From NCBI GenBank assembly GCA_964017185.1, contig OZ024880.1:34686329-34750328 (forward strand): 64,000 bases of DNA, written 5' to 3'. Below, in pieces: positions 1,160 to 59,335 of the stretch. Within the stretch, counting starts at the first letter, position 1. The number at the start of each line of letters is the position of its first letter. Under the pieces are notes generated by a model that made no database searches, was not told the DNA's origin, and saw only the letters and a program-made list of their open reading frames with translations. Position numbers and translations under genes: made by a program. The stretch is from Rugalucina vietnamica. Lineage: Eukaryota; Mollusca; Bivalvia; Lucinida; Lucinidae.

Positions 1160-1440
1160 ATAGCCGAGAAATTAGAAAATCGTAATCGGTTTAGATTCAT
1201 TTTCTAACCAACGTTTAACGTAAATAAAATTAAAACTCTAAGTAGCCCCATTTGGATTATACTAGTCATTGTATCGACTACCCTGTTGAAAGATGCAAAG
1301 TGACAGTAATTCTCTTGAGCTTCACATTGCCAAATCTGTAGGGTCACCAAGAGGATTAAGTAGCGGAAACCGCTGTATGGCCCATCCCACTCTCATTAAT
1401 ATGTTCAGTTCTCTTAAAGGATCTCAGTTTTTATTCACTT
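1160..1440 (+). repeat. Ribozyme-bearing repeat, type A, decayed
   Basis: This copy belongs to the dispersed family also found at 5745-6070, 19985-20395 (minus) and 42727-44390. Shared landmarks are GGTTTAGATTCATTTTCTAACCAA, given here only by position (1188-1212), TGTATCGACTACCCTGTTGAAAG, and the trailer CTCATTAATATGTTC...AAAGGATCTCAG. The hammerhead near its end (1341-1383) keeps both stem I strands (GGGTCA and TGGCCC), but CTGATGA has changed to CCAAGAG, so it should not cleave. Confidence 0.75.
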
Positions 1441-2439
1441 AGCTTAAGATATGTTATCTTCGTAATAGTACTTTATTATTTTGGGTTTCCAAACTCTGGT
1501 TTTAAGATGGGATATAATATTGCACCAGTTCCTGATCATTGCTTATTTTTACCTTTAGCTTTTTTAGCCAGAGGATTTAATAATTCATATGGATCATTAT
1601 TGTCACGTTATTAAACCTCTTATTTTCAAATATTATGTGTTCATTCGTTACGGTACATGGTCAAACTAAATCGAGGGACATTATTTGAATAAATTGTATC
1701 GGACATAAGGCTACATGTATTAAATTAGGTTTGGAAAAAACACCTAATTTTCCTCGGAAGAACTTGTCAAAATGTGTTTTTTTCCGCAGATGGACATGGC
1801 GTTAATGGTAAAATACATGTGAGTATCTATTATACTCCAATTCCATCCTGGCTGTCTGACAATTTCTACAACCACACATTTGCATGTAACCACTGACCAG
1901 ACATTGTCATTACCATACAATGTGACCAGACATATTGGCTCTTTTAGCAAATATACAGCTTCCAATTATGGATATTAATACGTTATCTGGTGAAATAAAA
2001 GCTGAATTTAATGAGAATTGACAAGAAGGTCTTAAAATCTCCAAGACTAAGAATGAGCGATAATAAACACTGACTGTAGATATATCAATTCAAATAAACT
2101 TTTATATGTACATTTACATCACCAAATACGTACTTCCCAAAATATTGACATTTCTCGTCGACCAAACCTTTACATTTGACATTCTAGGAAGTATGGCCAT
2201 AGATCATTCTTACGTCATGTTCTTGCGTCATGAAAAACTAAAAATGACAAGAACTGTAATTGAAACGAACTTAAAAAAAAAACAACCCAGACACCTATTA
2301 AGAAATACAACACGCGTAAAGAACAAGAAGACTTGGTAGCCATACGGTCAACATCAACCGACAAGAAAGGATGACAGAATTAACAGTCAACATGATGATT
2401 AATCACAACAGAACCGTCTTGGAACGGTCAGTAAAATAC
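1441..2439. other. No recognisable gene
   Basis: AT-rich sequence with short unrelated reading frames on both strands. I see no domain, splice-consistent exon or named repeat here. Confidence 0.5.
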
Positions 2440-2895
2440 AGTAAATTTGCCAGAATTTATATTTTACGAATATTCGCGAATTTCCAAAGGATCTAACAAT
2501 TACTTTTATTTGCTATTACTGCAGCTGGTGTTGTGCCGTGTGGCGGCCCTAAAAAGTCTCCCCGTACATCATCCATAGTGCAGATTATATTTTCCTTTTG
2601 ATCCTTTGGGATCAGTGAATATATATGAAGTATTTCAAATTTTTATATGTGAAGAATCATCTTCTTAACGGTATTTTGATTATTTGGCCCCTTTGGGAAT
2701 TTGAGTCTTTGATTTAGACTACACAGATGTAAATTCTTGAAATTGCAGCAAAATGTCTGGCTTTCGCTTCCAGTTTTATAAAGGGTCACTGATGAAGGTT
2801 CATTACCCGAAATTGTACAATATGGCCCATCTTCTAGCTTCGTATTTTTACTGCTTCCAAAGGATCTAACAATTATTTTTATTTATTGCCTCGCG
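2440..2895 (+). repeat. Ribozyme-bearing repeat, type B, with partial tandem copy
   Basis: This repeat has a first unit boundary CCAAAGGATCTAACAATTAC near 2484 and the same boundary again near 2855, about 371 bp apart. That implies parts of two head-to-tail units. It contains the family-wide segment GTGTGGCGGCCCTAAAAAGT and CATCATCCATAGTGCAGATT, and an intact hammerhead fold at 2783-2828. Tandem units with one ribozyme each are the layout expected of a retrozyme, a non-autonomous element copied through circular RNA. Confidence 0.75.
2783..2828 (+). ncRNA. Type I hammerhead ribozyme, core intact
   Basis: The strands fold as stem I GGGTCA (2783-2788) with TGGCCC (2823-2828), six pairs including one U-G. 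The core CTGATGA follows at 2789-2795. Stem II is AGGT and ACCC around the loop TCATT, with three standard pairs plus an A-C at the core end. GAA comes next, then stem III ATTG and CAAT with the two-base loop TA. The residue before the cleavage point is A, so cleavage is predicted between 2822 and 2823. The very short stem III matches metazoan type I hammerheads, which often work as dimers. All invariant core bases are present. Activity is inferred from the fold. Confidence 0.85.
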
Positions 2896-3479
2896 AATTC
2901 AAGATTCGCGATAATAGGAATCTTAATATATCATAAAGACTACAAGAACACTCATCTGCGAATTCAATACTTCGCGAGTAATTCGAAAATAGAAAATTCG
3001 CGACATAAATAACACGCGATTTTTTTTTTCGGTACTGATAGGCTTAACCTGATTCTTTGGGGCCCACTTCCTTTCTGCAGACAGTTTCGCATATCGTTAT
3101 CATTCTGGAAAAATCTACATTTAAAAGAAGGTTTGATGGGGTGAAGGTATAAACCAATAATACATAAAATAATTGATTTTAAGAATTCATTTATTTTCAT
3201 TTTCATCAATATTGATCAGATAAACATTTATGGTTAATAGGAAAAATACCTAGTCGTTTGGAACATATTTCCTTTAATTCAGATAATGGTCAGATTATAT
3301 CAATTTATGTCGTGTTCAGGTAGTGTTCTCCATAATGGAACACATAGTACAAAATTTGAAACGAAGACAATATACCTGATGGTATTCTAGCTCAGTATCC
3401 TTTTGACAGGGTCAAATGGACTATTTATCATGCTTTTATATATATTTACTACAATCGTTTCAGGGCGATTATATAATGC
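2896..3479. other. No recognisable gene; TTCGCGA-rich patch
   Basis: Between about 2885 and 3025 there are several copies of TTCGCGA or CGCGAATT, and another lies at 2470. This is more than neighbouring AT-rich sequence shows. It may be a small foldback relic. Nothing coding is recognised. Confidence 0.4.
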
Positions 3480-4130
3480 GTGGAACACCTACTAGTGGCT
3501 TTCAATTTGCTCATGGGCGAAATGCCTGAATGTTAATTGCCTAAAGGTGTCATTTATTTACCAGACAGATTCATATTTATCGAGTTGCTGAGAATAATTG
3601 CCGTTTATACTTCTTTGTCACAGTGTCATAAATCTGGACATAGTTTAACTCATTAGTTTATTCGTCAAATTCTTAAGTATATTTGTATAACAGTAATATC
3701 TGAAATGTGTCCTTAACTCCTGGGTATTCACGAACGTATGTCTGCTTACTGTTCTCGACAAGTGAACATGATCTAATGTTGATTGTTTTCTTAGCAATTA
3801 ATGCGATGGGATTTGCTGACAGTATCTCGAATTGTGTAGTGCCATTGTATAAAAGACTGAGTATAAATGAAAGCAGATTCAAGACCAAGACCCTCTAGTG
3901 CAAACTTTAAAGGTCACTTTAAGCTGGATCTAAGCTAGATTACAAAACAATGCATAGATGCTGCACCGTTTCATATCGGACCCACATCAGTTTGCCTGAA
4001 CAGTCTATTAGTTAGTTTTGTAAATGGTGTTAGTAACTTTACTTCACGTTTCCTTCCGATTACATTTTACCGCAGTGAATTTCATGTTTTAAATCAGATT
4101 TCTCATGATCTAGAGGTATTACAACATCGA
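3480..4130. repeat. Left copy of tandem segmental duplication, part 2
   Basis: This block aligns in the same orientation with 9125-9800. Both contain CACCTACTAGT, GGTGTCATTTAT, ATAATTGC, TGTCTGCTTACTGTTCTCG and CATGATCTAATGTTGATTG. The copies differ by small indels and many substitutions. No frame is preserved, so the conserved text is not evidence for a protein. Confidence 0.75.
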
Positions 4131-4374
4131 CGTAAGGCACCGTGATGAATATGATATATGGGTACAGGTCATATCCACTGCAACTTCTTTTTTAAATTTA
4201 TTTAGTCTGAATCCGGTTTATAATTGGTCATACAAGCTTATACAAGCTCGCACTGTATTGACTGATTAGAACATATGGTTGCAGCTACTGCATCTCTTGT
4301 GCAAATACTTTCAGCGACAAGTGTACTTTGGTAAAAGTAATTGATATGCATTTCGTGTGCACCATGGTCCAATA

Positions 4375-4480
4375 TTGCACTTTCATGTGGCGGTCATGAA
4401 AAGTATTCCCGTACATCATCCATAGTGCAGATTATATTGTCCTTATTGCACATTTGAACCGCCTATACAATTTATGAAAG
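4375..4480 (+). repeat. Fragment of ribozyme-bearing repeat without the ribozyme
   Basis: This fragment shares GTGGCGGTCATGAAAAGT and CATCATCCATAGTGCAGATT with the repeats at 2530-2600 and 43040-43110. It stops before the hammerhead part. Confidence 0.6.
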
Positions 4481-5019
4481 TGTGGTATAACGGGCTATTT
4501 ATTTATGGACATGTTTTCCCGATGCTCTGACTAATTGCGCCAGATAGTTATCGTATAGGGTCTGCCCACCCGTACAGCCAATGTTATCCAAATTTAGGTG
4601 CAGCGCTATATTACAATAAACATGTACGTTCTATATCGTTCAAGGTATAATGGACCAAATATGCAATGATGTATATGTACAGTCATGTAATTTATCTTAG
4701 GAAGTCCATAGCATTAATTCATCTCTCGGTAAGCGAGATATTTCTTTGTCCATCATCCATTAAAACTAGATCATTAGGTGACCTTTCATTATGTGTAAAT
4801 AATGAGGCAAGTGAATCCTCGTGCAATGAAATGAAGCGCATTCCTAGAATTTATACTATTTCCGGCGTTAGTGATTGGCGATTGCTGTCCAGGTCTTTCG
4901 AAAACGTGTTCGTGTCAACATTGCAAGATATAATAGAACTAGAATTACATATACCCGAATGATATATATTTTTCATGATATTTGCATTCAGCAAGATATC
5001 ACACTGTGATAATTTATAC
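4481..5019. other. No recognisable gene; one unassigned 98-codon frame
   Basis: An open frame runs on + from 4666 to 4962. Its C-terminal half is serine-rich with several cysteines, but I recognise no domain and see no matching frame in the second copy of the duplication. It is probably a chance frame. Confidence 0.3.
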
Positions 5020-5744: not shown

Positions 5745-6070
5745 ACTGACAAAAGTTTTCCTGTACATCACCCATAGTGTCGATTATATTTTCCTTTTGG
5801 TGCTTTGAGATCAAAGAGGATATTCTGAGAAATCAGAAAATTATTATTGATTTAGATACATTTTCTAACCAACATTTAATATATTCGTCCCCATTTGGAT
5901 AGTATTTGTCTTTGTATCGACCACCCTACTGAAAGGTGCAAAATTGTCTTTGGCTCCATGTCAAATCTAAAGGATCACTGATGAGGCTTAAGTAGCCGAA
6001 ACCATGGTATGGCCCATCCCCATTCTCATTAATATGTTTGCTCATGAAGAAACTCAGTTTTGATTTAATT
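5745..6070 (+). repeat. Ribozyme-bearing repeat, type A
   Basis: A near-complete unit runs from a CTGTACATCACCCATAGTG-like start, through the GATCAAAGAGGATATTCTGAGAAATCAG region, to the trailer after the ribozyme. It carries the intact hammerhead at 5972-6015. I see no protein-coding potential. Confidence 0.75.
5972..6015 (+). ncRNA. Type I hammerhead ribozyme, core intact
   Basis: Stem I is GGATCA (5972-5977) with TGGCCC (6010-6015), where one A-C mismatch weakens the outer half. The core is CTGATGA (5978-5984). Stem II is GGCT and AGCC around TAAGT. GAA is followed by the self-complementary stem III ACCATGGT, and the residue before cleavage is A. Cleavage is predicted between 6009 and 6010. 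Because stem III is palindromic, two molecules could pair there and form a dimeric ribozyme. Confidence 0.82.
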
Positions 6071-6928
6071 TACACAATATTGAAAATTGGTTTGATGAAA
6101 TTTGTTTTACGTGTGTATTGATGACAGGATTTATACGTGAGCTTAAGTCCCGTTTGAACTGCCCTTTGTTGCCAATGGTGGATTTTTTTTTCGGAATTAT
6201 CACTGCCCCGTCAGCTTTCGAAGAAGTAAATCGAACTACAAGTCGGTCATACATGTATATGTCTGATTTGACAATTATAACATATCCAACTTGTTTTGGA
6301 TGTAATTAACATTCATGCAGCGATTAATACGCAATCTCACCACGATCATTAACAGGCTTAATAAACGCCCTGATGCTCACCCTATGCCCAATTATGTTTA
6401 ACGAAAAAGAAGAAAAAAACACCTGCTCTAGGATTCATATATAAAGCGCAAAAATACTATGCGTTATGATATAGATTTCTACGGTTGTGGTACACGTATA
6501 TGTCTTAGGATCTCTTTTTGTCAATTTCCATTTCGTCCTTAGTTCATGACGTGATAAGTAAATCTGACAAACGAAATAACTTTTCGATCGTATATGTATT
6601 TCACGCAGCTGAGAAACACATGGTACGGAATGGGTGACACACAATGCAATTCTGGGCAAAGTAGAGGTGAGAAATTTGAGTTTTCCCCTATAGCGTTTGA
6701 CTGATAGATAAGTGCAGACAGTGGAGGAATTAAACCTTTATTGAATGAAAGTAACATATAATAATAAGTAATTCAGGTTATTTCGTTTTCGCGAACACTT
6801 CAGAAAAATGAACATATAGTACTTCCATCACAATAACATTGAAGTGTTTGCGAAAACGAAATAACCGGGATTTCTTACTTTCTTTCAATAAATGCTCAAT
6901 TTCTGCATTGTCTGCACCTATCAATAAA
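6071..6928. other. No recognisable gene; short inverted repeat at 6777-6865
   Basis: GGTTATTTCGTTTTCGC near 6777 is matched in reverse complement by GCGAAAACGAAATAACC near 6851, around an inner part containing ACACTTCAG and TGAAGTGT. This makes a small foldback of about 90 bp. Nothing coding is recognised. Confidence 0.5.
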
Positions 6929-17236: not shown

Positions 17237-17285
17237 TACATCATCAGGTTCACATGTCCATGAAAAGTATACCCCCTTGAAAAAA
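17237..17285 (+). mobile_element. CATCAGG MITE end, left bracket of the Penelope copy
   Basis: CATCAGGTTCACATGTCC is followed by CATGAAAAGTATACCCCCTTGAA. It faces the inverted counterpart at 19743-19908. Both share the variant CATGAAAAGTWTACCCCC, in place of the CGTGAAATGTATACCCCC more usual in the family. Confidence 0.7.
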
Positions 17286-17287
17286 AG

Positions 17288-17640
17288 GTACAAGCAGGCA
17301 AAGACCAGGAAAAGGCGCAATCAGAAAAAGATTCCCACTCCAAAAACCGAGGTGGGAAAAAAACAAACTAACAATCAGGTACTTATACCATGAAACAATC
17401 GTAAGCCGAATGGGCAGCTATTTTCCCAATAGGTGGCCACTCAGTTACCTTAACTTAACTAAAAACATGAAAACACACACAAGGCGCCAACAGCACAAAA
17501 AATTTTTAAACACCAAGACATAAAACAAAAAGAACCACCACAGAAGTATCGACTTGGAACGATCAGTAACACAAAGTTACTGGCGGGCTTAAACCGATTT
17601 TACATGGCCATAACCTCACCCTCATCTTCTGTAGTGGTTC
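17288..17640 (-). repeat. Penelope-like element 3' tail, well preserved
   Basis: The + strand runs from GGTACAAGCAGGCAAAGACC through GGTGGCCACTCAGTTACC and AAGTATCGACTTGGAACG to TACTGGCGGGCTTAAACCG and a CTTCTGTAGTGGTTC end. This is the longest clean copy of the tail in this region, and it lies just downstream of the reverse transcriptase copy on the - strand. Confidence 0.8.
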
Positions 17641-17879
17641 TGATATACACACATATAAACAAGCAATAAGGAAATCATGTTAAGAGATATAAAATATAGG
17701 AACCAACGTATAACATGTATAACGGAAATCAGGGTGACCAGCTATTGAAGGTAAGGTGGTCACAGTGCTAGCTTGGACTCAACAAATAAAATGCAGAGGG
17801 CTAAGTGAACAGCCAAAAATGATATTCGGGTGGCCACAAAGTCATACAACAAAAACTCATTATTGAAATAACTTGGATA

Positions 17880-18255
17880 AATATGAACCACCACAGAAGT
17901 ATCGCCTTGGAACGATCAGTAACACATAGTTACTGGCGGGCTTAAACCGGTTTTACATGGCCATAACCTCACCCTCAGCTTCCGCAGTGGTTCATAACAT
18001 TTAGTTAGTTATTCGGTCCTCGTGGTGAATCTCTAACTAGTCAATGAATCATCAAGAACAAACAAATAAATCATGATAAACATCCTGATGAATCAAAAAC
18101 CAGGACTCACAGACTGAGTAAGCTGCCCGACGATGGAGATCCCTGGGCGCCGAATAACCTACTAACTCCGGAGCAAAAGAAAAACACCAGTTGGACCCCG
18201 GTGGGCCAAGCAACAGACAAGAAGCTCCGGCCCCAACCAACTAAAATGAATAGCT
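17880..18255 (-). repeat. Untranslated 3' region of the Penelope-like element
   Basis: Downstream (on -) of the coding part, 18010-18255 holds CATTGACTAGTTAGAGATTC-like text, a TCATGATAAAC motif and the GATGGAGATCCCTGGGCGCC stretch. Then 17880-18000 repeats the TACTGGCGGGCTTAAACCGG tail segment. The same order occurs at 31190-31660, which shows that this tail belongs to the element. Confidence 0.75.
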
Positions 18256-18745
18256 TTATGTCGGGGCCATCATAGAGTCTGACGCCCGACCCACCGGCGT
18301 GCAATTAAAGAAGGCAGCATAGTTATCAACCATGATTGGGTTAAAAACTAAGCATGCAGACTGTCGCATAACATTCAAGTTATAACCTATACGTTTGTAA
18401 CGTGTTATGATTTTTCTGAACTGAAAAGAAAAATCATTAATTCCTTTAAGTTTCTTAAATTTGTAAACCAAGTCACCATAAAATTCAGGTTCCGAAAGGC
18501 CCTCACTTAAAAGCGTCTTTAACCCAACATTATATTTGGAAATCAATTCATAGTGTCTACGATAAAATTTAGAAAATGTTTTTCGAAGTTTATGATACCG
18601 ATAGCCCTGTTGGAGAAGTTTTGCGGTTAAACATTTATTTCGAGCGTTGAAGTCTGTAACATGATTGCAGACTCTAGCAAACCTAATAAGTTGCGAAATG
18701 TATACACCATAAGAAGCACGACGAGGAACGTCACCATCCAATAAA
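18256..18745 (-). pseudogene. Penelope-like element, C-terminal part of the reverse transcriptase protein
   Basis: This 161-codon frame continues the protein encoded at 18899-19745. Marks include VPRRASYGVYISQLIRFARV, GYRYHKLRKTFSKFYRRHYE, FYGDLVYKFKKLKG and RYKRIGYNLNVMRQSACLV, a region I recognise from Penelope-like proteins common in bivalve genomes. It is shifted by one frame from the upstream part. The upstream frame reads on to a TGA near 18740, next to FPFIGW, where the expected continuation would enter LDGDVPRR. A small indel in the TTTTCCTTTTATTGG text is the likely cause. I see no GIY-YIG endonuclease signature in this short tail. Confidence 0.8.
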
Positions 18746-18898
18746 AGGAAAATTTACTATATCAAAATCAAAGTCATCGCGCTTATCATAAATTTTAGAA
18801 GACACAAATCCATTTGCAACAGAAAGATGTAGATCTAAAAAGGGGGCTTCATTATCTGAGATATTGGCTTTGTTCAACTGAAGTTCAGGTGGATAAAT

Positions 18899-19745
18899 TT
18901 AATTGACCATACCTTCAAAATAAGGGTTGTCAATGTTCAATAGGTCATCGAGGTACCTAGATGTGGAATTAAAAGCCTCGATAACATCAGCTTGATTATC
19001 ATGGTTAAGAGAATCCATGAAATCTCTTTCGTAGCAGTATAAAAATAAATCAGCTACGAGAGGTGCGCAATTTGTACCCATCGGAATTCCAACAATTTGT
19101 CTGTATAACTTGGTCCCAAATCTAATATAAATATTATCAAGGAGATAGGATAAGGCGTCGCATACATTCTGACATGACCAAAGTGTATACCGACTTTGGT
19201 CAGAGGAAGTGAAAAAAGCCTTTCTGTCATTACATGCCAAATAAAGTGAACCATAGTTTTTTAATGCCCTTTTGAAGGTCCACTCTATCAAATCCAGAAG
19301 TTTTTCTTTAATTAGATTATGTGGTAATGTTGTATACAGAGTAGAAAAATCATATGTGGACAAGCTTGTCGCACGGAACCCTCTACACTTCAATTTACTG
19401 AGCACCTTACCAGAATTTTTAATTGACCAAAACCAATTTTTATTTGAAGTTTCATACACTGTCTCACAGTATCTTATAACATGAGATTTGATAGCAGTAA
19501 GACAGGAAGTTAATAATTTAGAAAGTTCAGTGGTAGTACAAGAGCTAGAATTTGCAATAAATCTAGCTTTGTATGGTCTTTTGTGAAGCTTAGGTAACCA
19601 ATACATCGTAGGAAGTTTGTCTTGGCCTTCATTGACACAAACAGAAAACTTAACAGGTAAATCGTTTAAGTGGGCATTAACTACAGACACCTCATCAGTA
19701 TCTGTCTCCAGATAAGCCCTGGTACCATCAAGCTCCTGTTTTAAG
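18899..19745 (-). pseudogene. Penelope-like element reverse transcriptase, broken
   Basis: This is the reverse transcriptase of a Penelope-like retroelement. Counting from the apparent start codon at 19849, the visible motifs are WLPKLHKRPYKARFIANSSS (residues 84-103), TYDFSTLYTTLPH (166-178, with the first catalytic Asp), GIPMGTNCAPLVADL (254-268) and YLDDLL (299-304, catalytic pair). The KLHK motif and GTNCAP variant separate Penelope-like enzymes from LINE enzymes. The first 27 or more residues of the open frame come from the adjoining MITE, so the true N-terminus is missing. A TAA at 18899-18901 cuts the frame between MVN and IYPPELQLNK, where a glutamine CAA is likely ancestral. An open but frameshifted remainder follows. 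The copy cannot make a full enzyme. Confidence 0.9.
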
Positions 19746-19908
19746 GTGTTAACCCCACTTTCATATAGAGGTGGTTCTAACGAGTACCCACAACCTATGT
19801 TTGGTGCAAAATAAGAAAATAGGTATACCCCTGTAAACCCCAGTTTCACTATATAAAAGTGGGGTTCATGGGGGTAAACTTTTCATGGACATATTTTCCT
19901 GATGTAAT
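19743..19908 (-). mobile_element. CATCAGG MITE end, right bracket of the Penelope copy
   Basis: Read on -, this gives CATCAGGAAAATATGTCCAT, AACCCCACTTTTATATAGTG, ACAGGGGTATACCTATTTTC and GTGGGTACTCGTTAGAACC, then a jump to the reverse transcriptase frame. Together with 17237-17285 it brackets about 2.5 kb that holds the Penelope copy and its tail. Confidence 0.8.
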
Positions 19909-19984
19909 AAAGCTAGGATAATCAAGAGTGAAAAAGTGTGAGAAATTATAATGTGTATATGGCTAAGCTTTAAGTACTGGTACC

Positions 19985-20400
19985 GTCAGTATGAAACAAA
20001 TAAAAATAAAACTGAGGTCCTTTATAAGAGCAGTGAGTATATTAATTAGAAAAGGGATGGGCCACACCCTGGTTTCGGCTACTTAAGCCTCTTCAGTGAC
20101 CCTTTTTAGATTGGCAAAATGGAGCCAAAGAGAAATAAAATATACAGATCTGATATTGTAATTGTGCAACTTTCAACAGGATAGTAGATACATGAACAAA
20201 CGGTACTTTTTATCCAAACAGAGCAAAATATATAAAACGTTGGTTAAAATGAATATAAATCAATAATGAATAACCTGCACTATGGATGTTGTACGGGGAG
20301 TCTTTTAGGGCAGCCACACGGCACAACACCAATTGCAGTAATAGCAAATAAAAACAAAACTGAGATGCTTAAGAGAAGCGAACATATTAATGAGAAAGAA
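19985..20400 (-). repeat. Ribozyme-bearing repeat, type A, more than one unit
   Basis: Read on -, the trailer CTCATTAATATGTTCGCTTC and GCATCTCAG occurs near 20395-20355. A full unit body with CTCCCCGTACAACATCCATA follows, then the hammerhead (20102-20059) and the trailer again (about 20050-20005, with CAGTTTTATTTTTATTTG). Two trailers around one ribozyme indicate head-to-tail units. Confidence 0.8.
20059..20102 (-). ncRNA. Type I hammerhead fold with a probable inactivating base
   Basis: On -, stem I is GGGTCA with TGGCCC, the core is CTGAAGA (allowed, since the fifth base is free), stem II is GGCT and AGCC around TAAGT, then GAA and stem III ACC and GGT around AG. The residue before the cleavage point (plus-strand position 20065) is G. 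Hammerheads need A, C or U there, so cleavage is doubtful although the fold is complete. Confidence 0.8.
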
Positions 20401-20735: not shown

Positions 20736-22824
20736 GAACATACTACATAAATGAACTTCTAAACTATAGAAATATTTTTTTTTCTTTATTTTTTACATGG
20801 TTAATGTTTTTTGTCTCGTACTTAAAATCGTTCTGACTCCTTTTATCACGTTCGAAATCTTGTTTATACCGATCGAGATTTTGAGAATATAAGGGATACA
20901 TTTCTCGCGCACTAAGGACAAAAATTTAAAAAGTGTCTTAAATTTTTAAACAAGAACATCGCTGCGCAGCAAATTGAAATACAACCATGAATGAACTTCA
21001 ATACCCTCCATGCGATCATTAGATTAACTGCCTTTAACCAGATAGCAATTCATCAGCTTAAAGCTTTGGAAATTATCCGATTCATCCTTCCCCATCTGGG
21101 AAAGTTCCTCATTGCTCTAACATGTTACAAACCTGACCAGCACATTTTGGTATTTTAACAGTAAGTCCGTGTTTATAGAACAGTATATAAGTAAGTAAGT
21201 TTATTAAAGTGTCACATATAAACTTTGCAAGCACATAACAATTTATACAATAAAACGGTTGATATCCAGCCAATTATTGGCTTATGAGACACTGTTTTAT
21301 ACATAAGATACATTTTATAATATTTTCATAATAATATATAAAAACAATATATGTACAGGCTTATGAAAAGCTAAAATCTACTTTAAAACAGAATACATGT
21401 ATCACAGATTTACAAATTGTGCATCAAACAATTCGTATGAATCATTTGGGAACATTTTTAAAACATGTTTAAAAGTACTAAACAAAATGTCTTTAAATCA
21501 TAAAAGTTTGCAAATCAACTTAATTGTTTATTAAAGTAATGATAATAAAGTATTGATTTTCATAAAAGACGTTTGCTGCTTAGTACAAACACCAGTAGAC
21601 CTAAAGGAGCTATACAGTATGTTAACTACATGACCTTTTAAATTTGAGTGAATTTTTGTTTCGGTAACACAATGCCCGTTGGCTTAAAGCAAAGTATACA
21701 AACGTTTTAAGGTTATGGCAAACTAGCACATGCCTTAACAGAGGAATCCCGAGGAAATTGAAACTGGCATTTTTGGTCATTTGTTACCGTTTTCATCCTA
21801 AGTTTGGCTTAAAGATACTTAATTCGTGATTTCACTATTTCTTCTACATTAAGCACATCTTCATGTCTAAATGCGGAATTTCTAATGACAGATTTAGTCC
21901 TATATGACTGCATTGCTATGGCTTGAATTTCTTAAACACTTACTTCTTATGTACATTGACATTTTGACAGCCTGTAATGGACTTCAATCACAAATAAAAC
22001 AATGTATTCCGACAATGGTGAAGATTTAAAGGTTGATATTCAATTCCCTTTAATTCCCTTAAGATTGATATGCACCGAGCTGGTTTTCATTTTGTTTTAT
22101 GGTGGGAGTGTTGAAGTTTATCTCCGTCACGAATATACGTAGTTGGTTTTCACCGTTTCTATCAGATTCAAGAGCGAGCTTCAAGTCGTATTTTGTCCAT
22201 TAATATGATGAACTATATATTTTGTATATAAGATTTTATATTGATCAATACATGTTTATTGTGTTTATGCACTACTGCTATAAATTTCTTACGGTCATAT
22301 CTGAGGGTTTGGAGTTTGTAAAACTTTAGAAGGGCCCCCGCCTACTGAGGCCTAAATGAATAGATGGGCTGCTTGAACCTACAGGCAAAGCTTATACGCC
22401 ACTGACTGACCATCTGACTTCTGGTAAACCACTCAGGTCTGAGCCTCAGGTTAAGCATCAATTCAAACAAACAAACAAACAAACACACATCCAAACAAAA
22501 AAAAACTTAAAAAGACATTGATGATAGAAACTTATCGCAGAAAACCTCGCCAAATTATCATGACTGGTTCCAGAGATAACTTGATTTGAAATTTGGAATT
22601 TCATCTCATGAATATTCATTTGTTAAAGAATGATGTCTTAAAAGAACAAAGAAAAGTTTGACCATCTCCAAAACAAACAGCTTCAACAAACAACCTCTAA
22701 TTAGTCAGCAATGCAACTTTTTGTTTCAGTTTCAAACATTACAAAAAAATGTCCTTGCAATGCATAGATTTTTCAGCTGTAAAAAATGAAACTATTCATA
22801 AGAAAACAAAATAAGGTTTGATCC
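20736..22824. other. No recognisable gene; possible LINE 3' end near 21190-21320
   Basis: Around 21185 an AAGTAAGTAAGTTTATTAAAG sequence leads into CAATTATTGGCTTATGAGAC. It resembles the 3' tail style of non-LTR elements (compare AATAAGCCATTCTACC near 55440) but is too diverged to assign. A CAAA-repeat tract lies at 22465-22500. No exon is recognised. Confidence 0.4.
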
Positions 22825-23030
22825 TTTGGGAGCAATACAAACATTTAAAGGGAGATAGTGTGGACTATATTGCGCAATTTCAGGTAATGAACCCTCGTCA
22901 GAAGCCCTTTTTAAACCGGCAACGAAAGCCAGAGTAGTGTTATGCAATTTCGAAAATTTACACAAGAAGTCAAAATCAAAGACAGATCCTAAACGGGGTC
23001 AAATAATTTATACTCGATATTTTTAATATG
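22825..23030 (-). repeat. Ribozyme-bearing repeat, type B
   Basis: On -, the body contains TTTGACCCCGTTTAGGATCT and CTCTGGCTTTCGTTGCCGG-like text, followed by the hammerhead at 22862-22907 and a GATCCTTTGGGAGC-related trailer. Compare 2640-2890 and 47205-47445. Confidence 0.75.
22862..22907 (-). ncRNA. Type I hammerhead ribozyme, core intact
   Basis: On -, stem I is GGGCTT with TAGTCC (five pairs including one G-U; the innermost U-U is unpaired). The core is CTGACGA. Stem II is GGGT and ACCT around TCATT. GAA is followed by stem III ATTG and CAAT around CG. A precedes the cleavage site, predicted between plus-strand positions 22868 and 22867. All invariant core bases are present, but the weak innermost stem I pair may lower activity. 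Confidence 0.8.
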
Positions 23031-42726: not shown

Positions 42727-42930
42727 TTGTGAATATTTTCCTTTCGGCCCTTTGAGATCAGCGAGGGTATTCTGAGAAATCAGAAATTCATTGTCGGTTT
42801 AGATTCATTTTCTAACCAATTTTTTATGTATTTGGCTCTGTTTGGGTAATATTAGTCTTTGTATCGACTATCCTTTTGAAAGTTGCAAAATTACAGTATT
42901 TATCTTTGGCTCCATTTTGCCAAATCGAAA

Positions 42931-42974
42931 GGGTCACTGAAGAGGCTTGAGTAGCCGAAACCGCGGTATGGCCT
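42931..42974 (+). ncRNA. Type I hammerhead ribozyme, core intact
   Basis: Stem I is GGGTCA (42931-42936) with TGGCCT, six pairs counting wobbles. The core is CTGAAGA. Stem II is GGCT and AGCC around TGAGT. GAA is followed by stem III ACC and GGT around GC, then A before the predicted cleavage between 42968 and 42969. It sits on the sense strand of the C1GALT1-like intron 1, so pre-mRNA could carry an active self-cleaving unit. Confidence 0.85.
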
Positions 42975-43110
42975 ATCTTTTTTCTCATTAATATGCTCAT
43001 TGCTCTTAAAGGATCTCAGTTTTATTTTATTTGCTATTACTGCAGCTGGTGTTGTGCTGTGTGGCGGCCCCAAAAAGTCTCCCCGTACATCATCCATAGT
43101 GCAGATTATA

Positions 43111-44282: not shown

Positions 44283-44326
44283 GTGTTACTGAAGAGGCTT
44301 GAGTAGCCGAAACCGCGGTATGGCCC
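44283..44326 (+). ncRNA. Type I hammerhead fold, weakened stem I
   Basis: The core CTGAAGA, stem II GGCT and AGCC, GAA, stem III ACC-GC-GGT and the A before the cleavage site (44320/44321) are all intact. Stem I is GTGTTA with TGGCCC, where one U-C mismatch and two G-U pairs reduce stability. Confidence 0.75.
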
Positions 44327-44384
44327 ATCCTTTTTCTCATTAATATGCTCATTGCTCTTAAAGGGTCTCAGTTTTATTTTATAA

Positions 44385-44829: not shown

Positions 44830-45210
44830 TATTTTACTGTTATTTGCTGTTACTACGGCTTATTTTGTGCCCTACGGCAGCCTTTAAAAGTCTCCCCGTA
44901 CATTATCAATAGTGCAAATTATGTTTTCGTTTTGTTCCTTTGTGAGTAGGGGAAGATATTGTGAGAAATCAGAGATTTCTTAGCCGATTAGATTCATTTC
45001 CTTTAAGGTTCAAAATATTTGACTCCATTTGTATAATACATGTCTTTGTATAAAATATTCTATTTGAATTTGCAAAACAACGTAATTCTCTCTGGTTCTA
45101 TATTGCCGGCTGAAAAGTGTCACTGATGATAAGTCGAAACCGCGTTATTAGTAATAGGCCGTTAATATTTTTCAAAACTCTTAAAGGAGCTTAGTTTTTA
45201 TTTTTATGTT
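44830..45210 (+). repeat. Ribozyme-bearing repeat, type A, decayed
   Basis: It has CTGTTACTACGGCTTATTTTG and CTCCCCGTACATTATCAATA-like starts, then the body. The hammerhead region at 45117-45160 keeps GTGTCA, CTGATGA and CGAAACCGCG, but stem II has collapsed to TAAGT, so it cannot fold. Confidence 0.7.
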
Positions 45211-45224: not shown

Positions 45225-45507
45225 TTCAGTTTTCCTACGTCGGTAGCACGGATTTTATATTTCTGATCGTTCAAAGGTGATACTTCTGCTGTGGTTCTAA
45301 TTGTTTCATGTCTGCTGTTTGCACCTTATGTGCGTTTTAATATTTTAGTTAGGTTAGGGCAACTGAGTGGTCACCGTTTAGGAATAAGCTGCACACTCAG
45401 TTTACGGTATGTTTTCTTTGTATAAGTACCTTATTTTCCCACCTTGTTTTTTGGGGTGGGATTTTCTTTCAGATTGCTCTATCTGATCAATGCATACTTG
45501 TACTTTT
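45225..45507 (+). repeat. Penelope tail adjoining exon 2 of the C1GALT1-like gene
   Basis: GATTTTATATTTCTGATCGTTC, given by position 45252-45273, then GGTGATACTTCTGCTGTGG, GAGTGGTCACCGTTTAGG, CTCAGTTTACGGTATG and the terminal TCTGATCAATGCATACTTGT. The tail ends 26 bp before the splice acceptor boundary of exon 2. Confidence 0.8.
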
Positions 45508-45532
45508 TTTCTCAGAAACATTTTTCTTTCAG

Positions 45533-46179
45533 TTCCTGATCAGGAGACGAAGCGTGTTCGAGTACTGTGTTGGATTATGACGTGCCCAAAGAACCTTAAA
45601 CTCAAAGCGATGGTTGTAAAATCTACATGGGGAAAGAGATGTGACATATTATTATTCATGAGTTCTGTACGAAATGACTCGTTTCCAACGGTTGGTTTAA
45701 ATGTATCGGAAGGGCGCGAACATTTGACTGCTAAAACTATGTTATCGTTACAATATCTTCATAAATATTATTACGACAAGGCTGATTGGTTCTTGAAAGC
45801 TGACGATGATACTTACGTCATCGTGGAAAACTTACGTCATTTCCTGTCAGAACAAAACGCCTCTGAACCTATTTATTTCGGCCACCATTTCAAATCATTC
45901 ATTAAGCCAGGGTTCATGAGTGGAGGAGCGGGATATTGCTTAAGCAAAGAAGCACTGAGACGCTTTGGTCAACGCGCCAAGAAAAATATTTCATGCCGTA
46001 TAGATGGAGGTCATGAAGACCAAGAAATAGGAAAATGTATGATGTACCTCGGTGTAAGAGCCGGGAACTCCACAGACAGCTTAGGACGGAACAGATTTCA
46101 TTGTCTTGATCCCGCGTCACACCTGCTGGGGAAGTATCCCAAGTGGTATTATAGTTGGGATGACCAGGGAGGTAGGGAG
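45533..46179 (+). CDS. C1GALT1-like: Core 1 beta-1,3-galactosyltransferase-like, exon 2 (catalytic domain)
   Basis: The exon starts after TTTCTTTCAG (45532) and completes the split codon from exon 1. Residues 57-272 form the catalytic part: RVRVLCWIMTCPKN (64-77), STWGKRCDILLFMSS (87-101), WFLKADDDTYVIVENLRHFL (142-161) with the metal-binding DDD at 147-149, GGAGYCLSKEALRRFG (187-202) and HEDQEIGKCMMYLGV (217-231). They match the C1GALT1 family in order and spacing. I place the donor after GGGAG at 46179 (GTATGT follows), because only this phase joins exon 3 in frame. The frame otherwise runs on through intron to a TAA at 46249-46251. The nearby GTAGGG at 46172 gives the wrong phase. Confidence 0.9.
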
Positions 46180-47204
46180 GTATGTACGATTCTTGTAACG
46201 ACAACTGAGAAAATAATTGTAGTGGGTTATATAAATTTTCTGTGGAATTAATACTAATGGTGATCGAGATGTCAAATTTTCCTGATTATACATGTAAATA
46301 TTTGAACAGTCGCACCTCATGATTGTTTTACGATTTGTGAATGTATTGCGGTAATCAAAATTTAACGGACCGAAGTTTTATTCATATAAAATTCAAAACA
46401 GAATGTTTTGCATGCTTCATAGACACCCCCAAACCACCATATAAATGAGTATAAATCGTTAGGGTTTAATATGGTTTCATCCATTATTGCAACAAAGGTA
46501 AATAGCGGTAACTAACTAATCAGTTTTGATGTACACTAGCACTTTGCAGACGATATGTCGCATTATACAAAGCATAAAACGCGGATGGGTCAATTATATA
46601 TGTTTATAATGGTTTCAATCCTCAGGGATTGCTTGCAATCAGTTTGCATTTTCGTATCTCTCACTACCATATGGGAATTTCTTTCTGATTGCGCCTTTTC
46701 CTGATCATTACCTACATGTACCTGTCCCTTTCATATTATTTTTAAAGATTTAAATAACTGCATATAATAATTCCGATCATAGTGACAACAAATGTCTGAA
46801 TTCACTGAAAAACCTTATACATGTACATAACTGGAATTTCGCTCAACATGATAATGTGTTATTCGCCAAATGTATATATTTATATATAACAACATAGCCA
46901 TCATCACAAGTATCATTTGTTGCATATTGCAGAAACCGATGACATGTGCATCAGGGTTGGGCAATGCATTAAACAAATGTCAATGCCTAGCTGTTTCTCA
47001 ACTTAATGCTAATGCAAATACAAAGCATATGTTTTGGCATAAGAACATTGTGTAATGCTTTACTTTTGCATATTTTGAATATGAATTAGCATTAGATTTG
47101 GGCATTAGCAACAAAACATTTTTCTATGATGTACATATATTCTCTAGAATAATAAACCAGGAGCAAGTGAACAAACAGTTTAGTACATATTGTTATATGA
47201 GAAA
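46180..47204. other. Intron 2, first part
   Basis: AT-rich intron. A 45 bp Penelope tail end (TTTCTGATTGCGCCTTTTCC, 46680-46722, + orientation) and an AT-rich repeat with internal GCATTAG motifs near 46950-47115 are the only recognisable items. Confidence 0.5.
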
Positions 47205-47445
47205 TTATATGTTAAGAAACATATTCTTAACAATATTTTACTATTTGACCTCGATTAGGAATTTGTCTTTGATTTAGTCTACCCTTGTGTAAATTCTAAA
47301 AATTCCAGCAGAACTATCTGGCTTTCGTGGCCGATATATTAAGGTCAATGATAAGGGTTCATTACCCGAAATTGCAAAATATGGCTCATTCTTTCTCCCT
47401 TTGAATGTTTTCTCTGCCTCCAAAGAATCTGATTTATATTTTTAT
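47205..47445 (+). repeat. Ribozyme-bearing repeat, type B, decayed
   Basis: TTTGATTTAGTCTACCCTTG, CTGGCTTTCGTGGCC and, at 47341-47387, AAGGTCA-ATGATAA-GGGT-TCATT-ACCC-GAAATTGCAAAATA-TGGCTC. The core has lost the essential C and one G (ATGATAA), so it is inactive. It lies in intron 2 of the C1GALT1-like gene. Confidence 0.7.
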
Positions 47446-55163: not shown

Positions 55164-55384
55164 TCGCGCGAGAAAACTAACAATCTGTGTTTCTGACACA
55201 AACCGAACTGTATGTGCAGCCACAAAAAATTGTTAGAGGGTTGATATTTTGGATTTAAAACGAGGAGAAATTGTACTGTCTATGGATTGAAAAGAACGGC
55301 GCTGATCAGCTGCGCAATTATTGCGCAGCTGATCAATATTTGTTTTCACATAAACAAATCATTGTTTTTCTGATTCAGTGGCTC
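55164..55384 (-). mobile_element. GAGCCGC foldback MITE
   Basis: CGCGCGAGAAAACTAAC starts it; the palindrome GCTGATCAGCTGCGCAATTA with TTGCGCAGCTGATCA is perfect; the end TTTTTCTGATTCAGTGGCTC is decayed. It abuts the 3' end of the LINE. Confidence 0.75.
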
Positions 55385-55389
55385 ATTTT

Positions 55390-55839: not shown

Positions 55840-57655
55840 TCAAATATAGTTTCTGAGATAACTCTTGAACTCATTTAAGGAGCCTGCTGTTCTCAAATTT
55901 AGTGGTAACAAGTTCCATAGTTTTGAAGCAGAATAAGAAAATGAGCGATCAAAAAGCGCAGACCGTGACCTAGGGATTGACAAAAGGCCATTTTCGGACG
56001 ATCTTAAGCACCGTGAATGCGTTTGTGAAATCGGTTTTAACAAGTTAGTTATGTATGTTGGTGTCAAATTATTAAGCGCTTTATATGCTAATATCGCTTT
56101 GTTATACATTAATCGTTTTGGTATTGATTGCCAACTTAATTGGTCGAACATATCTAGAGATGGTGTCATAAAAACGGCTTTTAAAATAATACGTGCTGCT
56201 CGTTTTTGAAGCTTAGAAAGACGTTCAATATTAGGACCGGATGTTGTGCCCCAAGTATTACTACCATAGTCTATAAGAGGCAGGATATAAGCCTGATAAA
56301 ATATTTTTTGTACATCTTGTGGTACATATGCTGATATGTGTTTAAGTAGCGATATTTTAGATGACAAAATCGAACACAGGTTATCTATTTGCGGTGTCCA
56401 AGAGAGGTTTTCATCTATGATTATCCCTAAAAGTTTTTGTTTTGAGACTTGTTTAATACTTGTGCCCTCTACATGTAGTTCTAGATGTTCCATGGCATCT
56501 AACCTATGTTTTGCTTTAAGTAACATATATGTTGTTTTGTCAAGGTTTATAGGTAACTTATTTCGTTTGCTCCAATTTATTATTTCTAAAAAGTCAGCTG
56601 AAATTTCTTCGTTAATCTTGTTTGTATCTGAGCTACTCGTGTGTACTGTTGTGTCATCCGCAAATAAGTCACAGTAGCAGTGCTTTAGGAAGAGAGGTAA
56701 ATCATTTACGAAGAGGAGGAAAAGTGTTGGTCCCAGAATCGATCCCTGTGGGACGCCAGATTTAATATTTGCAAAAAATGTCATTCCTCTGTCATACTGT
56801 ATAGATTGTTTTCGCGATTCAAGATATGATGTAAACCAACGAAGTGATGTATTATTTAATTTATATGCAGCAAGTTTCTTTATTAGTATTTTATGATCCA
56901 CTAAGTCGAAAGCTTTCCTAAAATCAATGAACATTGATCCAATTGTATCACCTTTGTCTATGTCTGCCATCCATTGGTCAATGAGTTTGATAAGTGCGGT
57001 TTGGCAACTATGTTTCTGCCGAAAACCCGACTGACTTTCATGGATGATATTATATTTATTCATGTATGCCATCAGATGTTTATTTACGTGTTTTTCAAAT
57101 ATCTTGGATAATGTAGGCAGAATCGATATTGGCCTATAATTACATGGGTCGGATTTACTGCCACTTTTGTGGATAGGGTATACTTTAGCAAGTTTTAGTC
57201 TGTCGGGGAATTTTCCGGTAGCTATACTTTTGTTAATAAGAGAAGATATGCTATCTGATAATACATTAGCGGCCGACTTTATTATTCTAGGTCCTATGCC
57301 GTCTAATCCAATAGCTTTGTTAGAATCTAAATTCATAAGTGAGATTGCCACTTGCTCTCGGGTGATATAAGGAATTTTGAAATATATATCAACTGGTATT
57401 TTATCGTTTACAAAAGTTGTTAGTTTTGACAAATCAGGGCCAACATTATCGGGATTATCGCTGCCAAATTTATCTGAGATTGTAGAAAAATATTCATTTA
57501 GTTTGCTTGCTACATCTTCTGAGGATGTATGTCGTTCATTATCTACGATAATTTCTTCAGGCAGATTACTGCTGGAGCTTTTATCCTTGTTATTGATTTT
57601 ACGGAAATGTTGCCACATTGCCCGTGTGTCTTTTGATTGTGTGACTGAATCTGAA
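55840..57655 (-). pseudogene. Non-LTR retrotransposon reverse transcriptase
   Basis: This long open frame encodes the reverse transcriptase half of the ORF2 protein. Counting from the internal Met at 57618, the motifs are NYRPISILPTLSKIFEKHV (160-178), FIDFRKAFDLVDH (230-242, first catalytic Asp), SGVPQGSILGPTLF (287-300) and FADDTT (319-324, catalytic pair). They are followed by the thumb and the usual C-terminal GSLNEFKSYLRNYI. Their arrangement fits the jockey/CR1/L2 group of LINEs. The frame is intact to its stop. Upstream it joins the linker at 57599-57991 only after a one-base shift in an A6 run (57654-57659 on +), so one T on the coding strand is extra or missing. It may be old damage or a homopolymer error. 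Confidence 0.9.
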
Positions 57656-57991
57656 AAAATGTTTGCGTTTAGCTTTTCTTATCAAAGATTTTGTCATGTT
57701 TCGGTATTTTCTATATTCAGACCATAAATGATTCCGTTTACAAGCGTCGCGTTTTCTTCTTACATTGGAAATTTCATCATTGTACCATTCGGGTAATTTT
57801 TTGGATTTTACGCGCTTAGTTTTATACGGTGCGTGGTGATCTAAGTTCTTTAAAAAGATAGTATACCATACTGTAAGATCGTCATTTATATCTGATTGCA
57901 GATCAACGCTGAAATTTCTGAGGTCTGCCGCAAGGTCTTTGATGAACTCATCCTCGTTAAACGTTTTAAAAGATCGATATGTAGTGGTCAT
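57654..57991 (-). pseudogene. LINE linker between endonuclease and reverse transcriptase
   Basis: About 110 codons beginning MTTTYRSFKTFNEDEFIKDL, with LPEWYNDEISNVRRKRDACK and SEYRKYRNMTKSLIRKAKRK. This is the normal connecting region of such LINE proteins. It is out of frame with the endonuclease because of a T10 run on + at 58000-58009, and out of frame with the reverse transcriptase at the A6 run. Both shifts sit in homopolymers. Confidence 0.85.
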
Positions 57992-58935
57992 ATGGTCTGT
58001 TTTTTTTTTACTTTATTATTAATTTTCCTTGAAAAGCATACTGGTAAATGATCGCTCACTGAATAGTGTGATACAAAGCTTTCAAGAATATTTTCCGGAC
58101 GTGATGTATAAACGTGATCAATAATAGTTGAGCTTGTCTCTGTAACTCGTGTCGGTTGAGATATAAGTTGCGATAAATCAAAAAGTTCAATTAAGTTCAG
58201 CCATTTTCTATTTGTGTTTGTAAGTTGATCCAAATTGAAATCGCCCATTACAATAATCTCGAGGCCCGTAGTCTGCGCTATTGATAGTTCTTCCTCAAAC
58301 AGATCTATCCACTCAGATTTGGAGGTAGGAGGTCGATAAAGAGTACAAGTTAAAAATGGTTTTGAGTTTGGTAAAGCCAATTCAACCCAAAGGGTCTCAA
58401 TGTTAGAAATTTCAATTTCACGTCGACGGTTGCAATTTAAGGAATTGCGATAATAAAGAACAACACCTCCTCCTGCTTTATTCTGTGTGTCGGATCTGTC
58501 TTTACGTATAAGATCAAAGCCAGTTACAGCCAACTGATCATCAGGAACGGAATCTGTCAAAAATGTTTCGCACATGCCGAATATATCGGGACTATGTTCA
58601 TGTGCCATAGTTATGCGTTATTCATCGATTTTTGGGACTAGATGATGAACATTCAAATTACAAAAGTGAAGACCTTTTGATTTAAATGTTAATTCGGTAG
58701 GTTGGTCTAATTCCGTCTCTAATAACGGGTTGATGCAACCATAATTACTCTGGTTCTTAATCTCATGTTCAGGTGTACATACTGTTACATTATCATCATA
58801 TCGACTTTGTAGGATGTCAGAAACACTTGCTTGATTTGGCTCAGTGACGAGAATTTCTGCGTCATCATTATGAGAAAGACATGTAAACCTGTTTGCATAA
58901 CATTCTTTCCCAAATAGTGATTTTTTGGTAAGCAA
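57988..58935 (-). pseudogene. LINE apurinic-type endonuclease domain
   Basis: This is the DNA-nicking endonuclease of the same element. From the Met at 58608, motifs are MGDFNLDQL (121-129), TIIDHVYTS (161-169) and SVSDHLPVCF (183-192), the metal- and phosphate-binding signatures of this nuclease family. The domain's start lies upstream of an in-frame TAA (58618-58620): GLHFCNLNVHHLVPKIDE precedes the stop and RITMAHEHSPDIFGMCETFL follows it. Further upstream the frame continues to 58935 with a non-conserved leader. The stop plus two homopolymer frameshifts make the copy non-functional as written. Confidence 0.88.
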
Positions 58936-58977
58936 AGGGCTGAATCGAATAGTACTATCTGTGCTGCCGACAAATAA

Positions 58978-58999
58978 AATATATATATATATATATATT
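58978..58999. repeat. (TA)n tract between LINE and SINE
   Basis: About ten TA units, next to a T-rich stretch. It may be part of the SINE tail, which on - ends with an A-rich and TA-rich segment. Confidence 0.85.
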
Positions 59000-59218
59000 T
59001 TATTTTTTTTGATTCCGTTTTACGTCCCTTTCAAGATTATTTCAGCTCATATGAGACGGGCCAATCAGTAGGTGGGGCGAAAACGGGAGAACCCCGAGAA
59101 AAACCACCTGGCACACCTGCAAGCATAACTTGGCTTGTCTCACATGTGGTCAGAGCGGGGCTCAAACCCGCACCAGTGATTAAGAAACAGCGCTCTTAAC
59201 CGCTCTGCCACGGGGGCC
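59000..59218 (-). repeat. tRNA-derived SINE
   Basis: On -, the head reads GGCCCCCGTGGCAGAGCGGT, TAAGAGCGCTG and GGTGCGGGTTTGAGCCCCGC, giving A and B boxes like those of a serine or leucine tRNA. The body contains GTGCCAGGTGGTTTTTCTCG and GGGTTCTCCCGTTTTCGCCC. It ends in GGACGTAAAACGGAATC with an A-rich tail. The head is well conserved, so this may be a fairly young copy. Confidence 0.8.
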
Positions 59219-59224
59219 GCCTAT

Positions 59225-59335
59225 AAAAGTTATGTCCTTTGGAAGCAGTAAAAACATTCAAAAGTATGAGTGTGGGCCATATTGCGCAATTTCAGGCACT
59301 GAACCCTCATCTGTAGTGACCCTTAGTCAGTTGTA
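59225..59335 (-). repeat. Ribozyme-bearing repeat fragment, type B
   Basis: On -, the hammerhead at 59274-59322 has stem I GGGTCA with TGGCCC, stem II GGGT...GCCT and stem III ATTG-CG-CAAT intact. The core reads CT-ACA-GATGA, with three extra bases, which should stop cleavage. A TGCTTCCAAAGGACA trailer follows. Confidence 0.75.

What the first reader, a model, noticed from the sequence alone, without database searches (positions are those of the whole stretch)
1160..59335. Type I hammerhead ribozymes in a dispersed, tandem, retrozyme-like repeat family
At least nine repeat copies across the window carry a hammerhead fold of the same design: six-pair stem I (GGGTCA with TGGCCC), CTGANGA, a four-pair stem II, GAA, a tiny 3-4 bp stem III with a two-base loop, then the cleavage site. 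Cores are intact at 2783, 5972, 22862 (minus), 42931 and 44283. Decayed versions occur at 1341, 20059 (minus), 45117, 47341 and 59274 (minus). The units are about 374 bp, occur head to tail and have no coding capacity. This matches what is known of metazoan retrozymes and of hammerheads in Penelope-like elements.
Basis: partly seen in the sequence, partly recalled or inferred. Interest (0 to 1): 0.9.

Follow-up and report, generated by a model that had tools for sequence, protein, structure and literature searches.

The report
Hammerhead retrozymes sharing a Penelope-like tag
These are thousands of small non-coding mobile elements whose RNA carries a self-cutting ribozyme; most studied copies begin at one internal point, next to a short stretch identical to one in a larger Penelope-like transposon of the same genome, which is therefore the likely machine that copies them.

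Summary
The hammerheads are real. Pairing covaries, and two core patterns match 18,270 genome places, none for the reversed controls. This is a metazoan-type non-LTR retrozyme family with two subfamilies (374 and 378 nt), like those described in mussel.

New here: (1) 79 of 121 alignments end at one internal site (unit 57-71) while starts are spread, which fits 5'-truncated reverse transcription from a template joined across the ribozyme cleavage site. (2) Stem III is mostly palindromic, and two units fold together as a double hammerhead. (3) Thirteen curated insertions are near-blunt. (4) 18-19 nt beyond the fixed end lies a 41-nt block identical to one 17 nt beyond the 3' end of an abundant, young, Naiad-like Penelope element that lacks a hammerhead; a truncated copy lies at about 17282-19765. 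The 24 block occurrences read in 20 chosen places lay in one element or the other.

Most likely the Penelope enzyme mobilises the retrozymes. A shared promoter is not excluded.

The parts
1166..1430 (+). Retrozyme A copy, decayed hammerhead 1341-1386
   Evidence: unit 182 to 54; model R1 37.9 bits
2482..2884 (+). Retrozyme B copy, longer than one unit, ends at the fixed 3' site; hammerhead 2783-2831, 41-nt block 2530-2570 (exact)
   Evidence: unit 32 to 62; R1 64.9 bits; block
4386..4457 (+). Retrozyme fragment, unit 93-163
5751..6071 (+). Retrozyme A copy ending at the fixed 3' site; hammerhead 5972-6018
   Evidence: unit 106 to 65; R1 66.9 bits
13072..13145 (-). Short retrozyme A copy ending at the fixed 3' site
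   Evidence: unit 366 to 65
19998..20397 (-). Retrozyme A copy in two aligned pieces; hammerhead 20056-20102 with G at the cleavage position; block 20290-20327 (92% over 39 nt)
22821..23005 (-). Retrozyme B copy; hammerhead 22859-22907
   Evidence: unit 233 to 42; R1 54.8 bits
41542..41590 (+).
   Evidence: R1 26.5 bits, E 2e-5
42733..43110 (+). Retrozyme A copy of one unit that does not end at the fixed site; hammerhead 42931-42977 with all pairs; block 43051-43091 (95%)
   Evidence: unit 141 to 143; R1 69.6 bits
44087..44394 (+). Retrozyme A copy; hammerhead 44283-44329
   Evidence: unit 142 to 75; R1 66.3 bits
44832..45156 (+). Old retrozyme copy with a hammerhead remnant 45122-45156 lacking stem II
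   Evidence: R1 17.3 bits, E 0.011
47208..47442 (+). Retrozyme B copy; decayed hammerhead 47342-47390
   Evidence: unit 198 to 58; R1 48.4 bits
59222..59324 (-). Retrozyme B copy; decayed hammerhead 59271-59322
   Evidence: unit 337 to 54; R1 46.1 bits
17282..19765 (-). 5'-truncated copy of the Naiad-like Penelope element (candidate partner), ending at its 3' end; the 5' boundary is an estimate by eye; the 41-nt block is not in this truncated copy
   Evidence: frames; sequence; 3' end mapped; genome copies
18214..18281 (-). SECIS element at the end of the Penelope RT frame
   Evidence: Rfam RF00031, 37.4 bits against 35

Best explanation
A non-autonomous, non-coding retrotransposon family of the metazoan retrozyme kind (subfamilies A, 374 nt, and B, 378 nt). 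Inferred: a transcript is cut by its type I hammerheads, which probably work best as paired (double) hammerheads because stem III is a palindrome, and units are joined into circles or stay uncut as multimers. Shown from the genome: copying starts at one fixed point, 62-65 nt past the cleavage site, after a U-rich tail; it runs back across the joined cleavage site, sometimes more than once round, and stops at varied points, leaving 5'-truncated copies of a fraction of a unit to about three units, inserted nearly blunt in the cases that could be checked. Inferred from shared sequence: the enzyme is that of a Naiad-like Penelope element that recognises a 41-nt block 17-19 nt beyond the start point. 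The Penelope element presents this block in head-to-tail tandem transcripts; the retrozyme presents it in a circle made possible by the hammerhead.
For: Hammerhead: covariation, genome counts against reversed controls. Paired form: centre of stem III self-complementary in 67 of 74 A and 27 of 33 B motifs, cofold minimum equals the double hammerhead in 4 of 4 typed variants. Fixed start: 50 of 78 A and 29 of 43 B alignments end at unit 57-71, expected 3.1 and 1.7. Joined template: 51 of 55 exact B places on chromosome 1 run exactly across the cleavage site; 26 of 79 copies longer than one unit; units within an array more alike than the best other locus in 13 of 18 arrays, one tie, four against. 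Partner: 41-nt identity at nearly the same spacing; block 7377 places against 0 for the reversed control, 17 retrozyme and 7 Penelope contexts in 24 occurrences read; similar near-blunt insertions; young, abundant, tandem Penelope family.
Against: No RNA data. 42 of 121 alignments end elsewhere. Four of 18 arrays do not favour a single template. Three of 9 tail-chosen terminal copies begin within about 8 nt of the cleavage site, as run-off of cut linear RNA would. The RNA fold around the block is not better than with shuffled flanks by enclosing pairs (P 0.18-0.44) and only partly by energy (P 0.09 A, 0.30 B, 0.025 Penelope), so the block may act as DNA. Apparent chimeras proved to be mostly nested insertions. 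The Penelope RT was named from motifs recalled by eye: no Pfam, NCBIfam or PDB sequence match to it, GIY-YIG below its cut-off, and the structure job did not finish.
Confidence: 0.6

Rival explanations
1. The shared 41-nt block is a DNA promoter (or other transcription signal) that both families need, and retrozymes are reverse transcribed by another enzyme such as a LINE.
For: The block lies just inside the 5' end of the Penelope unit, where a downstream promoter could sit (L100); RNA pairing around it is not significant; an endonuclease-RT LINE is present in the window.
Against: The spacing from the 3' end to the block is kept (17, 18, 18-19 nt) although the spacer sequence differs, which a promoter does not require; insertions are near-blunt, whereas target duplications are usual for such LINEs (recalled, not measured here; one search gave no usable LINE copies).
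Confidence: 0.22
2. The template is an uncut or partly cut multimeric transcript of a genomic array, not a circle; the hammerhead plays no part in copying, as reported in vitro for PAc.
For: Arrays exist to be transcribed; PAc insertion did not need hammerhead cleavage (PMC11167929); crossing the cleavage site fits uncut RNA as well as circles.
Against: Many copies are single and not in arrays (34 of 53 have no neighbour at 350-400 nt); array units mostly resemble each other best; the hammerhead pairs covary, so it is kept for something.
Confidence: 0.3
3. A satellite repeat spread by unequal exchange or gene conversion, with hammerheads as passengers.
For: Tandem units with high identity within arrays.
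Against: Dispersed copies with one preferred 3' end and variable 5' ends, insertions with matching empty sites, inverted pieces as in twin priming (L044, L066).
Confidence: 0.03

Closest known systems
Metazoan non-LTR retrozymes, in particular of the mussel Mytilus galloprovincialis (PMC7229834; results parts 1-2, discussion and passages read)
   Same: Non-coding units of ~350-390 nt with type I hammerheads, two sequence families, thousands of copies, dispersed and tandem, Penelope elements in the same genome
   Different: Here stem III is palindromic; the fixed internal 3' end, near-blunt insertion and the block shared with a Penelope element were not in the parts read; that paper speaks of target duplications larger than 4 bp when present. 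Whether this genome is a mussel is unknown.
Amphibian retrozymes (axolotl, newt; PMC7229834)
   Same: Weak stem III with a palindrome; hammerheads that act as dimers
   Different: Other sequences; loop interactions reported there were not tested here
Naiad-type Penelope-like elements (definition recalled; the original paper was not found in the library)
   Same: N-terminal GIY-YIG-like frame, RT frame, in-frame TGA codons, SECIS, tandem copies
   Different: The link of such an element with retrozymes is not known to me
PAc, Poseidon of Anolis carolinensis (PMC11167929; main text read)
   Same: Reverse transcription starts inside the RNA, with needed RNA on the 3' side of the start; AT-rich targets; tandem copies
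   Different: PAc carries its own hammerhead; the Penelope element here has none found
SINE-LINE pairs that share a 3' tail (recalled)
   Same: A non-autonomous element borrows a recognition sequence of an autonomous one
   Different: The shared block lies beyond the copied 3' end, so it is available only in a circular or tandem (or longer) template

Membership tests
Metazoan non-LTR retrozyme | Type I hammerhead | tested here: met
   alignment, covariation, model
Metazoan non-LTR retrozyme | Small non-coding unit (~170-400 nt), dispersed and in tandem | tested here: met
   374/378-nt units; spacing of listed places; no frame of 110 aa or more listed inside the window's retrozyme copies apart from frames of neighbouring DNA overlapping their edges
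Metazoan non-LTR retrozyme | Spread by reverse transcription | tested here: met
   preferred 3' end, 5' truncation, empty sites, inversions
Metazoan non-LTR retrozyme | Target duplications longer than 4 bp when present | tested here: not met
   no general signal in 74 copies; 13 curated empty sites at -6 to +5 nt; the published wording makes the feature optional
Metazoan non-LTR retrozyme | Circular RNA in tissues | not testable with these tools
   no RNA data
Metazoan non-LTR retrozyme | Self-cleavage | not testable with these tools
   needs in vitro transcription
Naiad-type Penelope-like element (partner) | N-terminal GIY-YIG and Penelope-type RT | tested here: inconclusive
   Pfam GIY-YIG 17.0 bits against 22.6; RT by recalled motifs only; structure job unfinished
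Naiad-type Penelope-like element (partner) | Selenoprotein signs | tested here: met
   SECIS in the window and 4 of 5 loci; TGA at two frame breaks in 4 of 4 loci printed
Penelope-like element with hammerhead | Hammerhead inside the Penelope element | tested here: not met
   no match in 9 loci nor in L089+L085, which by coordinates cover the unit between them; no core pattern in L089

The most novel reading that the evidence does not exclude
Retrozymes are parasites of a hammerhead-less Naiad-type Penelope element. Its reverse transcriptase starts copying upstream of its RNA recognition block, so the block must lie downstream of the start point. The Penelope element meets this with head-to-tail tandem copies; the retrozyme meets it with a ribozyme-made circle. 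That would explain why Penelope elements occur in tandem and why animal retrozymes keep hammerheads.
Probability: 0.45. Interest if true: 0.82.

Novelty: new variant of a known kind. Interest (0 to 1): 0.66.

Why it matters
Which enzyme spreads animal retrozymes, and what the genomic hammerhead is for, are open questions; the 2020 paper calls Penelope elements a strong candidate because both carry hammerheads, occur in tandem and co-exist. Here one genome gives a concrete partner, a start site, a short candidate recognition block and an insertion signature, so both questions could be tested with one RNA and one protein.

Tried and rejected
Template-switch chimeras: eight loci first seemed to join a Penelope 3' end to a retrozyme (L003, L005, L015, L055, L066, L068, L070, L076; one search counted seven adjacencies, six in one orientation). 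Flank comparison showed L055, L066, L068 and L070 to be Penelope insertions inside retrozymes, and retrozyme pieces on both sides suggest the same for L003. L005, L015 and L076 stay unexplained. The argument was dropped.

Target motif: several empty sites read CTT^C or CTTT^G, but the first non-T base after the tail over 79 copies gives no sharp motif (which then stopped with a script error). Dropped as a claim.

Hairpin around the block: the same fold appears in A, B and the Penelope element, but shuffled flanks give as many enclosing pairs often enough. Kept only as a suggestion.

Target duplications: none in general. L060 gave conflicting paralogue alignments (near-blunt, -73/-78) and was set aside, as were L016, L068_1168, window_1166, window_47208 and rows that matched their own locus.

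Partner by 3'-tail similarity: none recognised in the held sequences. LINE as a control for target duplications: no usable copies. A 26-nt piece of the block has no exact match in viral contigs, where records of this or a near genome may be left out. PDB sequence searches of the two Penelope frames gave only weak unrelated rows. The structure job was not finished at eight collecting calls, so no fold search was run. The explicit energy of the dimer came back as an error value; only the cofold minimum is used. Two of five planned windows of the cleavage-site step test were answered.
Full report
Observation. The hammerhead motif is present and not by chance. The core pattern occurs 12 times against 2.72 expected, six of them this family. 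Flanks were read, and 42 motifs chosen from the window and fetched loci were aligned (110 motifs were held). On the 36 distinct rows the type I fold pairs in 93.7% of cells (shuffled 86.3%; slid by 1-3 columns at most 50.5%), with 37 both-side changes against 14.6 shuffled. Two other measures, pairs with a both-side change (4 against 4.1) and further pair types (13 against 14.2), do not exceed shuffles. Changes on both sides include C-G to U-A in stem I, G-C to A-U and C-G to G-C in stem II, and C-G to U-A in stem III. A model built from this alignment finds 11 places in the window, six of them training members. Rfam's hammerhead models do not pass.

Scale. Core patterns of subfamilies A (up to 2 mismatches) and B (up to 1) match 10,166 and 8,104 places, with none for the reversed controls. 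Units of 374 nt (A, from L060) and 378 nt (B, from L021) are 68% alike overall. No two units in the window are adjacent; elsewhere 19 of 53 listed chromosome-1 places of a B pattern have a neighbour at 350-400 nt.

Stem III. Its commonest forms are palindromes (ACCGCGGT, ACCATGGT, ATTGTACAAT, ATTGCGCAAT). The whole segment is palindromic in 55 of 74 A and 23 of 33 B motifs, and its centre is self-complementary in 67 and 27, with all four self-complementary dinucleotides in use. Folding two units together gives the double hammerhead as the minimum for 4 of 4 typed variants, while the single-unit minima are other folds. This resembles the amphibian hammerheads described in PMC7229834.

Fixed start of copying. 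Aligned to a tripled unit, 50 of 78 A and 29 of 43 B alignments of 60 nt or more end at unit position 57-71 (expected 3.1 and 1.7 if uniform), while starts are spread over the unit; 26 of the 79 with that end are longer than one unit (three overlapping loci and alignments near locus ends were left out, and a few alignments are cut by the ends of the reference). So most copies begin, in the sense of reverse transcription, after the tail TTTTATTTTTATTT, 62-65 nt past the cleavage site, and run back a variable distance. These loci were chosen because they hold a hammerhead, which biases lengths. Two samples avoid this. Of 55 exact matches to B positions +1 to +40 listed on chromosome 1, 51 are also exact across the cleavage site, and the whole counts do not fall across it (982 and 1094 places). 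Of 20 places chosen by the A tail, 11 continue into another unit and 9 are terminal; of the 9, 6 cross the cleavage site and 3 begin within about 8 nt of it (read by eye; L125 and L126 are identical). Hence the usual template is joined at the ribozyme cleavage site, a circle or a multimer, with perhaps a minority of cut linear RNAs. Units within an array are more alike than the best other held locus in 13 of 18 arrays, with one tie and four the other way, which favours one template copied round.

Insertion. There is no general target duplication (74 copies, one above the 99th percentile for flanks of 60 and 40 nt). Thirteen insertions with a usable paralogous empty site have offsets between -6 and +5 nt, often with a few bases that could belong to either side (L010, L019, L021, L028, L037, L038, L040, L052 twice, L062, L067, L069, L075). 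Five Penelope insertions give -10 to +3, one of them -17 against another paralogue. Inverted pieces like those of twin priming occur (L044, L066, L116).

Partner. The RT frames at 18256-19882 (minus) belong to a family of which the genome search scored 122 matches of 78,237 first-look candidates, at 97-100% identity over the matched part, some in tandem at about 4.22-4.28 kb. Its copies hold an N-terminal frame with a sub-threshold GIY-YIG match (17.0 against 22.6 bits), TGA at two frame breaks (a further stop upstream was not examined), a 640-aa RT frame and, in the window and 4 of 5 loci searched, a SECIS. These fit the Naiad type of Penelope-like element, a definition recalled. No hammerhead was found in it. 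Its copies end sharply at ...TTGTACCTTTTT. At a tandem junction (L089), 17 nt after that end, starts GTTGTGCCGTGTGGCGGCCCTAAAAAGTCTCCCCGTACATC, identical over 41 nt to retrozyme A unit 84-124 and over 40 nt to B unit 81-120, which start 18 and 18-19 nt after the usual retrozyme 3' ends. Between A and B the first 100 columns after the start site are 92-100% alike, against 40-72% elsewhere. The block has 7377 places genome-wide with up to 2 mismatches, none for the reversed control. In 20 places picked from the exact matches of that list (not at random; some were picked for Penelope-like position or odd spacing) it occurs 24 times, 17 in retrozymes and 7 in Penelope context. The Penelope 5' context matches 636 places and the tandem junction 462 (different patterns and mismatch limits, so the ratio is rough). 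A 970-nt tandem derivative (L108) keeps the first 110 nt counted from the block and the 3' region while the coding part is lost.

Interpretation. Identical block, nearly equal spacing, similar insertion signature and great abundance make the Penelope enzyme the likely mobiliser. In PAc, reverse transcription also starts internally, with needed RNA on the 3' side (PMC11167929, main text). A cut linear retrozyme unit would allow only a product of about 65 nt, whereas a circle gives start site, block and full length in 374 nt; this is inference. That the block is a promoter remains open, since RNA pairing around it is not significant. My earlier evidence from apparent chimeras was wrong and is withdrawn.

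Literature. Searches of the held open-access library listed no paper whose title or shown abstract start reports a block shared by retrozymes and Penelope elements or a fixed internal start in retrozymes; the full texts were not all read, and papers outside the library, including Cervera 2014 and Lunse 2017, were not seen. PMC4918200, PMC7761336 and PMC3846280 were seen as passages; the first mentions 15-bp target duplications for Nematostella repeats, the last short target duplications for rotifer Penelope elements, both unlike the near-blunt insertions here.

Verdict. A known kind of element, with a new and directly testable link to its copying machine.

Noticed in passing
window 18214-18281 (minus) and L080, L085, L086, L088: SECIS at the end of a Penelope RT frame, with TGA codons at frame breaks: a selenoprotein-coding, young, high-copy retroelement.
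   Followed up: partly
L108 (G000:C1:23149700-23151100): 970-nt tandem non-autonomous derivative of the Penelope element that keeps the 41-nt block and the 3' region.
   Followed up: partly
L003, L055, L066, L068, L070: Penelope copies inserted inside retrozymes; in L003 and L070 at nearly the same retrozyme position, about unit 263-267.
   Followed up: partly
window 17242-19922 and repeats D2/D3: A MITE-like repeat beginning CATCAGG and ending CCTGATG that seems to surround the Penelope copy.
   Followed up: no
window 55840-58617 (minus): Endonuclease-RT LINE in several overlapping frames.
   Followed up: no
window 45487-46251 (plus): Fringe/galactosyltransferase-like coding frame.
   Followed up: no
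window 59910-60467: Tandem array of 4.5 copies of a 124-bp unit.
   Followed up: no
window 62519-62716: Long hairpin scoring below threshold against plant microRNA models; probably a palindromic mobile element.
   Followed up: no
window about 59222 (minus side): A tRNA-like SINE start (GGCGGCCCCCGTGGCAGAGCGG...) directly abuts the end of the retrozyme B copy.
   Followed up: no
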